64,000 nucleotides of DNA from Coleophoma eucalyptorum (lineage: Eukaryota > Ascomycota > Leotiomycetes > Helotiales > Dermateaceae): the NCBI GenBank assembly GCA_026120035.1, contig JALRME010000001.1, positions 1,811,909 through 1,875,908 of the forward strand, read 5' to 3'. The notes under the pieces were generated by a model. The model was given only the letters and a program-made list of their open reading frames with translations. It made no database searches and was not told where the DNA came from. Of the stretch, positions 36,403-38,643 are shown piece after piece (the stretch's first letter is position 1; each line of letters opens with the position of its first letter). A program made the position numbers and the translations under genes.

Positions 36403-38643
36403 ATGGCTTCCTTGATGTTGCGCCGCAGTCCTATATACCTGGGTGGCAAACTGCATTTCCTCGCGCATATCTCTCGAAGATGCGTAGCATCTGCAGCATC
36501 AGCTGTACGACAAATCCCAAAGCACGATGTCTCACCCGAGCCTTCAGTTATCGCGCCAGAAAATACTCGGAGGGCAGCCATCAAGAATGCTAAACCATTC
36601 TCCTCCTTCCTGACCGATACCTTCCAGAGGCAGCACGACTACCTGCGCATTTCTATCACCGAAAAATGCAATCTTCGATGTCTCTACTGCATGCCCGAAG
36701 AGGGAGTGCCTCAGTCCCCACCCCCAGATCTGCTCACAACGCCTGAGATTTTCCTTCTCTCGTCCATATTTGTCTCCCAAGGCGTCACCAAGATTCGTCT
36801 GACCGGCGGCGAACCAACGGTTCGCAGAGACATACTTCCATTGATGCACCAAATCGGCTCGCTTCGAAGTCAGGGTCTTCGAGAGCTTTGCCTCACGACG
36901 AACGGAATAAGCCTATTCAGGAAGTTGGACTCGATGGTCGAGGCTGGATTGACAGGAGTCAATCTGAGTTTAGATACTTTGGATCCATGGCAGTTTCAAA
37001 TCATGACGCGGCGGAAAGGCTTCGAAGCGGTCATGAAAAGCATAGAAAAGATATTGGAGATGAACAAGCTTGGGGCTGGCATCAAGTTGAAGATCAACTG
37101 TGTGGTGATGCGTGGAATGAACGACAAAGAGATCCTGCCTTTCGTCGAACTTGGGCGCGAGAAGGACCTGGAGGTCCGTTTTATCGAATATATGCCTTTT
37201 GACGGGAATAAATGGAGTCAAGGCAAGATGCTAGGTTATGGAGAAATGCTCGAGGTAATCCGGGCAAAGTATCCTGGTCTTGAAAAGGTTCAAGACCACA
37301 AGAACGATACTAGCAAGACTTATCGGGTTCCAGGGTTCGTGGGGAAGATGGGATTTATCACTAGCATGACCCACAACTTCTGTGGCTCATGCAACAGACT
37401 ACGCATCACGAGTGACGGTAATTTAAAGGTGTGTTTATTTGGAAACGCAGAAGTCTCGTTGCGAGATATCTTGAGAAAGTCAAACTCCGACCAACCAATT
37501 GATGAACAAGCCTTTGAGGCTATGAGAAGCATTGAAATGGATAGACGGCAAGGACTTGCAGGCCTAAAGGGCCCTTTAGGAATCAACGCGAATGAAAAGG
37601 AACTTCTGGAGGTGATTGGACTAGCTGTCAGCAGAAAGAAAGAAAAGCATGCTGGTATAGGAGAGCTTGAGAACATGAAGAATAGGCCCATGATATTGAT
37701 AGGTGGGTAGGTTTTTCACCTTCTCACCAAATAACGACCTGGACGCATTTGCGGTTGATAGGTCGAATGTGTACATATGATACCACAATTAGTACTTGGA
37801 GTATGAATAGTTCCTACGACTCCGTCGCAATTTTCTACTGTATGTACTAGCATCCGCTGACATTTTGTAGATGATATGTCACTACTCCCTCGCCGCGCAG
37901 ATTTTACCAGTAATAGATCTACCAATCGCAACATGGGAATTCAAGGACGAGGGTTGGGTTGGAACAGGATCTCTACTCATCTTCTTCCCTCGCCATGCAC
38001 GCACTTGCCCATGCGGTATGCTTCGAGTCGCGCAGGCGCCAATCCGTCGCCAGCCACCGACTCAAAATCCATTTCAAAGCCAAAGCTCACTCATTTGACT
38101 GCATCGGGTAGCGCTCATATGGTTGCAATATCAGACAAGTCGCCAAGCAAACGTACAGCAACCGCTGTTTGTAGTGTTTACTTCTCCAATTCTGCAGCTT
38201 TGCCACTCATATTAGAGAATCGTGCTAAGAAGGGCGACGTACTGGGTGTGGCGAGAATCGCGGGCATCATGGCGGCAAAGAAGACTTCTGATTTGATTCC
38301 TCTCTGTCATCCTATTGCTATTACGCACGTCAGCGTTGAACTCGAGGCCCTGGCTTCTGATCCTACCGGGCCTGGCACAGCAGTGCAGCATAGTCCAAGT
38401 GCCTCAAAACAGCAGTCTACTTTGTTTGGTCGGGTTGATATTGTTGCGACCGTATCTTGTGACGGAAAAACTGGTGTGGAGATGGAAGCACTCACAGCTG
38501 CGTCCGCAGCTGCGCTCACTGTCTACGATATGTGCAAAGCAGTTGATAAAGGCATAGCTATAGAGGGCCTGAGAGTAACAAAAAAGGAAGGAGGAAAAAG
38601 TGGAGTCTGGGTCAACGGCGAGCAAGGAGGCAACGGATCATAG
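36403..38643 (+). CDS. cnxABC: molybdenum cofactor biosynthesis MoaA-MoaC fusion (MOCS1/cnxABC)
   Basis: Exons 36403-37702 and 37871-38643 give a 690-aa fusion. The N-terminus is Arg-rich, Asp/Glu-poor and mitochondrial-like. The MoaA radical-SAM part has EKCNLRCLYC (CxxxCxxC, Cys 89, 93, 96), LTGGEPTVRRD, LTTNG, and the second 4Fe-4S cluster HNFCGSCNRLRITSDG with a later VCLFG Cys. It converts GTP to 3',8-cyclo-GTP. The MoaC part (SGSAHMVAISDKSPSKRTA, DLIPLCHPIAITHVSVEL, MEALTAASAAALTVYDMCKA) makes cyclic pyranopterin. This feeds nitrate reductase and other molybdoenzymes. Without splicing, exon 1 reads on for two codons and stops after Gly-Gly, the C-terminal motif that MoaA needs; splicing removes it. 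MoaC would then need its own start (ATG 37876 or 37933). The intron is 168 nt, longer than most here. Confidence 0.93.
37703..37870 (+). promoter_or_regulatory. cnxABC intron, probable splice switch
   Basis: The donor G|GTGGGT at 37702/37703 lies inside the first Gly codon of ATA GGT GGG TAG. The acceptor side is strong: CTGAC at 37857-37861 and TTTGTAG ending at 37870. Splicing gives ..MILI-DDMSLL.. into MoaC; retention gives ..MILIGG-stop. A competing donor GTAGGT starts at 37707. Confidence 0.7.

What the first reader, a model, noticed from the sequence alone, without database searches (positions are those of the whole stretch)
37690..37876. Built-in splice switch between Gly-Gly-ending MoaA and a MoaA-MoaC fusion in cnxABC
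Seen: exon 1 ends ATG ATA TTG ATA GGT GGG TAG. The donor GTGGGT begins inside the first Gly codon, and a strong CTGAC..TTTGTAG acceptor 168 nt downstream restores frame into MoaC. Known: MoaA/MOCS1A needs its C-terminal Gly-Gly for activity, and human MOCS1 uses alternative splicing to make either MOCS1A ending in Gly-Gly or a MOCS1AB fusion lacking it. Inference: this fungus does the same by intron retention, with one intron deciding which protein is made; the retained form could also act as a bicistronic message. I do not know whether this exact arrangement has been described in fungi.
Basis: partly seen in the sequence, partly recalled or inferred. Interest (0 to 1): 0.82.

Follow-up and report, generated by a model that had tools for sequence, protein, structure and literature searches.

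The report
Known fungal nit-7 MoaA/MoaAC splice switch
One fungal gene can make either of two proteins needed for the molybdenum cofactor, depending on whether one intron is removed; the arrangement is real here but the same switch has already been shown in Neurospora, and what looks new is a likely mitochondrial cutting site in the linker of the fused protein.

Summary
MoaA (36403-37710, +) ends GGT GGG TAG. A GT donor begins at base 2 of the first Gly codon (37703). The only acceptor scanned that has a branch-point match (37870) rejoins MoaC in frame, giving a 690-aa fusion without Gly-Gly. The closest relative found, Coleophoma crateriformis, is modelled with the same junction.

Neurospora crassa nit-7 has the same anatomy (PMC7232280): donor inside the penultimate Gly codon; unspliced RNA gives NIT-7A, spliced RNA NIT-7AB; the unspliced form rises under nitrate induction. 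The suggested bicistronic message is disfavoured: N. crassa needs the fusion.

Added here: MoaA and MoaC domains each found once in this genome. Two further donors (37707, 37711) would keep Gly-Gly-stop after splicing. The intron is longer than is usual here. Fused fungal linkers carry R-x-[FYL]-[SA], a mitochondrial MPP/Icp55-type motif (173 of 199; shuffle mean 34), N. crassa included (RLFST). This window has RYASS instead, which fails that strict motif but fits an R-2 site. It may be the cut that frees MoaC, a step reported in N. crassa without a site in the text I read.

The parts
36403..37710 (+). MoaA / NIT-7A reading frame (435 aa + stop; start codon chosen by me), ending MKNRPMILIGG; radical SAM domain and Mob_synth_C
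   Evidence: Pfam PF04055 and PF06463 above cut-off; best PDB match MoaA 1tv7
37702..37710 (+). GGT GGG TAG: terminal Gly-Gly and stop of MoaA
   Evidence: 88 of 89 hits under 500 aa of the first search end in GG
37703..37870 (+). 168-nt intron whose removal deletes Gly-Gly-stop and fuses MoaA to MoaC in frame
   Evidence: same junction in the Coleophoma crateriformis model P0001; same position in N. crassa nit-7 by published coordinates
37703..37708 (+). Donor GTGGGT (fusion form); not seen among intron-like starts in this genome
   Evidence: 0 of 98 GTGGGT qualify in 264 kb, against 4 of 112 GTAAGT and 6 of 113 GTATGT (too few to exclude use, about 0.4 expected from background)
37707..37712 (+). 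Second donor GTAGGT; with acceptor 37870 gives GGT GGA TGA, i.e. a spliced RNA that still ends in Gly-Gly
   Evidence: computed product ...MILIGG*
37711..37716 (+). Third, weak donor GTTTTT directly after the stop codon; compare N. crassa variant delta1469-1696, 9 nt after the main donor
   Evidence: PMC7232280
37857..37861 (+). Branch-point-like CTGAC
   Evidence: only CTRAY match upstream of any of the 11 acceptors in 37741-38110
37868..37870 (+). Acceptor TAG
37871..38643 (+). Exon 2: linker, then MoaC / NIT-7B and stop
   Evidence: PF01967 170 bits; PDB MoaC matches such as 4fdf and 1ekr
37871..38094 (+). Linker up to the LTH that opens MoaC; basic and Ser-rich, like an internal presequence
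   Evidence: 55 of 75 residues identical to the P0001 linker, same length
38011..38037 (+). MRYASSRAG: candidate mitochondrial processing site (R-Y|A-S-S), about where most relatives have R-x-[FYL]-S
   Evidence: motif definitions from PMC8847149
36159..36166 (+). CTCCGAGG, match to the NirA consensus CTCCGHGG
   Evidence: 5 matches in 64 kb on both strands; consensus from PMC3020322
36213..36225 (+). Two HGATAR sites whose starts lie 7 nt apart (AreA/NIT2-type; that assignment is recalled)
   Evidence: 5 neighbouring pairs within 12 nt among 155 sites in the window

Best explanation
This is the orthologue of Neurospora nit-7 / Aspergillus cnxABC in a leotiomycete near Coleophoma. One intron decides which protein is made. 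If the intron is kept, or removed from a donor past the Gly-Gly codons, translation stops after MoaA with its C-terminal Gly-Gly (GTP 3',8-cyclase). If it is removed at 37703, the Gly-Gly and stop are lost and MoaA is fused to MoaC; the MoaA part then serves mainly to carry MoaC into the mitochondrion. There the linker is cut, possibly at a processing-peptidase site near MRYASS, to free MoaC (cPMP synthase). Shown here: anatomy, frame, conservation, single copy. Shown elsewhere, in N. crassa: both transcripts, the need for both proteins, cleavage after import, the nitrate effect. Inferred: that this fungus splices the same way; the cut site.
For: Exact junction. Closest relative P0001 has the same modelled junction and a linker of equal length, 55 of 75 identical. 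In N. crassa NIT-7A is nt 1-1464 plus stop and the intron starts at 1460, the same base of the same codon; P0247 reads PMILI-DTN. 169 of 210 fused relatives have D, V, A or E after PMILI, which requires exon 1 to end after the first G of the Gly codon. Mob_synth_C and MoaC each found once in the 45.3-Mb genome, so this locus should supply active MoaA as well as MoaC. Mo-enzyme domains at three places, one of them with stops inside. NirA/GATA-type sites upstream. Linker motif enrichment in relatives.
Against: No RNA data from this fungus. GTGGGT did not appear among intron-like starts here, and its use is not shown. 14 of 210 fused gene models keep GG at the junction, so other donors are modelled in some species. 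Of the 5 of 215 fused models without the motif, three (P0102, P0188, P0242) join right after HAG-x, i.e. at an upstream donor, P0269 joins earlier still and P0263 reads PMIMAG. Relatives' junctions are, as far as I could see, gene predictions, not cDNA. 26 of 199 linkers, P0001 among them, lack R-x-[FYL]-[SA], and so does the window; allowing A before the S adds only one protein to the count (174 of 199).
Confidence: 0.87

Rival explanations
1. Constitutive fusion: the intron is always removed at 37703 and the fusion does everything; the Gly-Gly-stop codons are only an accident of the donor.
For: Most fused gene models seen have lost Gly-Gly (196 of 210).
Against: GG ends 88 of 89 hits under 500 aa. 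No second MoaA domain found. In N. crassa NIT-7AB needs NIT-7A as a partner for growth on nitrate.
Confidence: 0.06
2. Bicistronic message: the unspliced RNA yields MoaA and, by reinitiation (for example at ATG 37876), a separate MoaC; splicing matters little.
For: MoaC frame is open from 37861 with an in-frame ATG at 37876. Such a reading has been discussed for A. nidulans cnxABC (cited in PMC7232280). Reinitiation yields trace MOCS1B in one human patient (PMC9607355).
Against: In N. crassa the donor mutant does not grow significantly on nitrate, NIT-7A plus NIT-7B is not enough, and NIT-7B alone is not mitochondrial. 165 nt lie between stop and that ATG.
Confidence: 0.05
3. Donor choice rather than retention: the main MoaA message is spliced at 37707 or 37711 (still Gly-Gly-stop), so the switch is between donors 4-8 nt apart. 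This is a variant of the best explanation and not exclusive of it.
For: GTAGGT at 37707 gives MILIGG-stop after splicing. N. crassa has a comparable third RNA, delta1469-1696.
Against: In N. crassa that third form is not essential, and the retained form is the one raised by nitrate induction. GTTTTT qualified 0 of 129 times, GTAGGT once in 86.
Confidence: 0.15
4. Another donor, 37655 (GTATAG), makes the fusion and removes 16 more residues of MoaA.
For: Same phase, gives a 674-aa fusion; P0102, P0188 and P0242 are modelled with upstream donors.
Against: Coleophoma P0001 and 210 of 215 fused relatives keep a PMILI-type motif. GTATAG qualified 0 of 87 times.
Confidence: 0.03

Closest known systems
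Neurospora crassa nit-7 (Wajmann 2020, PMC7232280: abstract, passages, Results, Discussion, legends and strain table read; Probst 2014 is its reference 7, recalled, not read)
   Same: Single gene, MoaA exon then MoaC exon; intron begins at base 2 of the penultimate Gly codon (by its coordinates); Gly-Gly and stop inside the intron; intron length a multiple of three (237 nt; here 168); a further downstream donor that leaves Gly-Gly-stop.
   Different: Different length of intron and linker (128 against 75 residues); extra donors at +4 and +8 here against +9; linker RLFST there, RYASS here; regulation untested here.
Human MOCS1 (PMC9607355, passages read)
   Same: One locus gives MOCS1A or a MOCS1AB fusion by alternative splicing at the end of the A part; MOCS1AB is cut (position 432) to release MOCS1B.
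   Different: Alternative splicing in exon 9 of a ten-exon gene rather than one retained intron; import of the fusion uses an internal signal, which N. crassa NIT-7AB was found not to use.
Aspergillus nidulans cnxABC (Unkles 1997, recalled; not read)
   Same: Orthologous MoaA-MoaC locus; discussed as bicistronic.
   Different: Its junction was not seen here.
Arg5,6-type mitochondrial tandem precursors cut internally by MPP (PMC8847149, passages read)
   Same: Model for the proposed linker cut: internal presequence-like stretch with an MPP site between two enzymes.
   Different: No splice switch between the single and the tandem form is described in the passages read.

Membership tests
nit-7-type MoaA/MoaA-MoaC intron switch | MoaA and MoaC at one locus in this order, single copy | tested here: met
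nit-7-type MoaA/MoaA-MoaC intron switch | GT donor starting inside the penultimate Gly codon | tested here: met
   N. crassa position
nit-7-type MoaA/MoaA-MoaC intron switch | Gly-Gly-stop in the intron; removal joins MoaC in frame | tested here: met
nit-7-type MoaA/MoaA-MoaC intron switch | Further downstream donor that leaves Gly-Gly-stop | tested here: met
   In silico only: 37707, 37711
nit-7-type MoaA/MoaA-MoaC intron switch | Both spliced and unspliced RNA present, unspliced raised by nitrate induction | not testable with these tools
   No RNA data; NirA/GATA-type sites upstream are only suggestive
nit-7-type MoaA/MoaA-MoaC intron switch | Mitochondrial import of A and AB, release of B | not testable with these tools
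   The N-terminus looks like a presequence by eye only; no predictor was run
MPP/Icp55 internal processing site in the linker | R-x-[FYL]-[SA] in the linkers of the family beyond composition | tested here: met
   173 of 199 linkers of 30 aa or more, shuffle mean 33.8, max 53, reversed 37; 120 of 139 dissimilar linkers, shuffle mean 23.9, reversed 24
MPP/Icp55 internal processing site in the linker | Same strict motif in this window | tested here: not met
   Window and P0001 have R-Y-A-S-S, which fits an R-2 site (R-x|x-S; that form is recalled) but not R-x-[FYL]-[SA]
Human MOCS1 arrangement | Alternative splicing in exon 9 of a multi-exon gene | tested here: not met
   Here all of the MoaA coding sequence lies in one open frame and one intron is involved; a 5' untranslated intron was not looked for

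The most novel reading that the evidence does not exclude
In sordariomycete and leotiomycete fungi the spliced nit-7-type product is a mitochondrial tandem precursor. Its linker is an internal presequence-like stretch with a conserved MPP/Icp55 site (R-x|[FYL]|S; R-Y|A-S-S in this fungus), mostly 15-24 residues before the LTH that opens MoaC, and this cut frees MoaC. One intron thus toggles between an active cyclase and a disposable carrier that imports and then releases the next enzyme.
Probability: 0.6. Interest if true: 0.5.

Novelty: new member of a known kind. Interest (0 to 1): 0.34.

Why it matters
It carries a mutant-tested Neurospora switch into Leotiomycetes, and its junction signature in 210 fused fungal proteins suggests that the donor in the first Gly codon is widely kept. 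The linker motif gives a concrete, testable answer to how MoaC is released from the fusion in mitochondria, a step seen in N. crassa for which the text I read gives no site.

Tried and rejected
RNA hairpin over the donor: GUGGGU (37703-37708) pairs with GCCCAU (37686-37691), but shuffles fold as well in 10 of 200 (51 nt, z -1.85), 16 of 200 (28 nt), 11 of 200 (76 nt) and 8 of 200 (261 nt, z -2.00), so it is at best suggestive; no DNA of relatives was at hand to test it. DNA of relatives: an exact degenerate pattern for the peptide MKNRPMI-[LF]-IG found nothing in viral contigs or genome contigs, as expected of virus and prokaryote collections; codon conservation of GGT GGG TAG is therefore inferred from proteins only. 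The first intron scan was too noisy (529 GT candidates against 521-729 for four control dinucleotides) and was replaced; even all GT together are barely above non-GT (4.3 against 3.8 per thousand), and only some consensus-like hexamers stand out. Stop-codon readthrough rejected (six in-frame stops). R.YS alone as motif is weaker (23 of 147 linkers, window included, against 1.8). Breadth: I did not look up the class of each hit; by names, which I judged from memory, those named are Leotiomycetes and Sordariomycetes, except that P0226 bears a dothideomycete name (Lasiodiplodia). Eurotiomycetes and Basidiomycota were not searched for separately, and nothing is claimed there.

Full report
WHAT IS THERE. 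The + strand carries a MoaA frame with a start at ATG 36403 and its stop at TAG 37708-37710. It has radical SAM and Mob_synth_C domains above cut-off and its best solved relative is MoaA (1tv7). It ends MKNRPMILI-GGT-GGG-TAG. A MoaC frame follows at 37861-38643 (PF01967, 170 bits; MoaC structures). The donor GTGGGT at 37703 begins at base 2 of the first Gly codon. The acceptor at 37870 is the only one of 11 [CT]AG in 37741-38110 with a CTRAY match upstream (CTGAC 37857-37861). Joining them gives PMILI-DDMSLL and a 690-aa fusion. The 168-nt intron is a multiple of three and the retained frame meets six stops.

GTAGGT at 37707 with the same acceptor gives GGT GGA TGA, i.e. MoaA still ending in Gly-Gly from a spliced RNA. 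GTTTTT at 37711, directly behind the stop, would do the same but is weak. A donor at 37655 is in the fusion phase too and would give 674 aa.

HOW GOOD THE SPLICE SIGNALS ARE. In 200 kb of the same genome plus the window, intron candidates with six consensus-type donors are mostly 40-79 nt (35 of 48, against 5 of 25 with control hexamers; no excess above 80 nt). In another scan GTGGGT never qualified (0 of 98), GTAGGT once in 86, GTAAGT 4 of 112, GTATGT 6 of 113, GTGAGT 2 of 100; all GT 4.3 and non-GT 3.8 per thousand. The filter is crude and 0 of 98 is also what background would give (about 0.4), so this does not show that GTGGGT is unused; it only fails to place it among the common donors. 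A non-consensus donor and a long intron would fit an intron that is removed inefficiently; that is inference.

CONSERVATION. Each protein search lists the best 120 only: of 7955, 5457 and 3497. Of the first 120, 89 are under 500 aa and 88 of them end in GG; the other, P0031, is an annotated partial. Over the three lists there are 313 distinct proteins; 215 pass my text test for both domains (a few fusions, such as P0067, P0160, P0285 and P0294, fail it). By that test 87 are MoaA-only, 85 ending in GG; the exceptions are P0031 and the misfiled P0067. Five of the 215 lack the PMILI-type motif. In the remaining 210 the next residue is D 147, G 41, V 11, A 6, E 5. All are G-first codons; such residues are 1386 of 7350 in the linkers. 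For the 169 with D, V, A or E, exon 1 must end right after the first G of the Gly codon, so the donor sits where it sits here. 14 models keep GG and 196 do not. Of the five without the motif, P0102, P0188 and P0242 join after HAG-x, P0269 earlier still, and P0263 reads PMIMAG. These are, as far as I could see, gene predictions, and pipelines may favour the same GT, so this shows a conserved opportunity for splicing rather than splicing itself. The best relative, P0001 of Coleophoma crateriformis (92% over 98% of the MoaA query; Leotiomycetes, Helotiales), has the same junction, and its linker has the same length with 55 of 75 residues identical.

ONE COPY. Whole-genome searches (45.3 Mb, 101 contigs) found one MoaC and one Mob_synth_C, both here. 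The double glycine is called functionally relevant for NIT-7A in PMC7232280, and that MoaA/MOCS1A needs it is recalled. If so, this locus must also make the Gly-Gly form. PF00174, a Mo-enzyme domain, matches at three places, one with stops inside, so the cofactor is presumably needed.

PRIOR ART. PMC7232280 (passages; Results; Discussion; legends and strain table) describes this in N. crassa nit-7. NIT-7A is nt 1-1464 plus stop; intron 1 is 1460-1696, 237 nt; unspliced RNA encodes NIT-7A with the double glycine, spliced RNA encodes NIT-7AB. The strain table (1461T>C) fixes the donor T; by the coordinates it is base 3 of the penultimate Gly codon. A third RNA, delta1469-1696, keeps the stop by its coordinates; it is not essential. 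[quoted passage not shown] A strain unable to make delta1460-1696 does not grow significantly on nitrate; [quoted passage not shown] NIT-7B alone is not mitochondrial; the fusion loses its A part after import. The N. crassa protein itself came up (P0247, 808 aa): PMILI ends at residue 486 and D follows, in agreement. Human MOCS1 is the analogous case with a different splice pattern (PMC9607355, passages).

UPSTREAM SITES. The interval 36026-36402 holds CTCCGAGG (36159), a match to the NirA consensus CTCCGHGG given in PMC3020322 (passages), one of five in the 64-kb window, and two HGATAR sites starting 7 nt apart (36213, 36220), one of five neighbouring pairs within 12 nt among 155 sites. This fits nitrate control but proves nothing; the same paper notes over 800 genes with NirA sites, while roughly 80 genes respond to nitrate, and its main text has no word beginning with cnx.

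A NEW LEAD: THE LINKER. Between PMILI and the LTH that opens MoaC lies a variable, basic, Ser-rich stretch (R+K 13.3%, D+E 6.0% over 199 linkers). Of the 215 fused proteins 206 gave a linker; 7 shorter than 30 residues were dropped, leaving 199 (the window not among them; one, P0252, runs into MoaC by my parsing). R-x-[YFL]-[SA] occurs in 173 of 199 (shuffle mean 33.8, maximum 53; reversed linkers 37). R-x-[YFL]-S-[STQNH] occurs in 151 of 199 (shuffle mean 9.0, maximum 19). In 139 mutually dissimilar linkers the counts are 120 (23.9) and 104 (6.8). The S or A of the last match lies mostly 15-24 residues before LTH (124 of 173). [quoted passage not shown] N. crassa has LRLFSTT there. The window and P0001 have RYASS instead, which fails the strict motif but fits R-x|x-S; allowing A at that place adds only one protein (174 of 199). 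I take this region as the likely place where NIT-7B/MoaC is freed. No cleavage site is given in the parts of PMC7232280 that I searched. Searches of the held library for this link showed none by title and abstract, and passages of PMC9607355, PMC9370521, PMC3625234 and PMC11879881 show none; subscription papers, Probst 2014 and the human MOCS1 study among them, were not read. A counter-argument is that N. crassa NIT-7AB without its N-terminal signal stayed cytosolic, so the linker is not an independent import signal; a cutting site does not need to be one.

VERDICT. Observation confirmed; interpretation right in the main, already published for the orthologue. The remaining interest lies in the extra donors and in the linker site.

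Noticed in passing
window 38011-38037 and linkers of fused proteins among P0001-P0313: Conserved mitochondrial-processing-like motif in the MoaA-MoaC linker (R-x-[FYL]-[SA] in relatives; RYASS here).
   Followed up: yes
window 36159-36225: NirA-type CTCCGAGG and a close pair of GATA sites in the interval before the MoaA start.
   Followed up: partly
window 37676-37718: A short predicted RNA hairpin covers the donor GTGGGT; only marginally better than shuffles.
   Followed up: partly
window 34351-36025 (-): Two overlapping minus-strand frames with weak WD40/beta-propeller matches below the curated cut-offs, probably one intron-split gene divergent from the MoaA-MoaC gene.
   Followed up: no
window 24454-30254 (-): Adjacent minus-strand frames, one with a DH domain (27225-30254) and one with PH and EVH1-like domains (24454-27228), overlapping by 4 bases: probably one Rho-GEF-like gene with an intron.
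   Followed up: no
window 59340-60947 (-): SET and AWS domains with a sub-threshold WW match, by domains like the histone methyltransferase Set2 (name recalled).
   Followed up: no
L005 (G000:C13:2995520-2996167, -): Third Mo-enzyme domain hit whose frame contains three TAA: an intron or a decayed copy.
   Followed up: no
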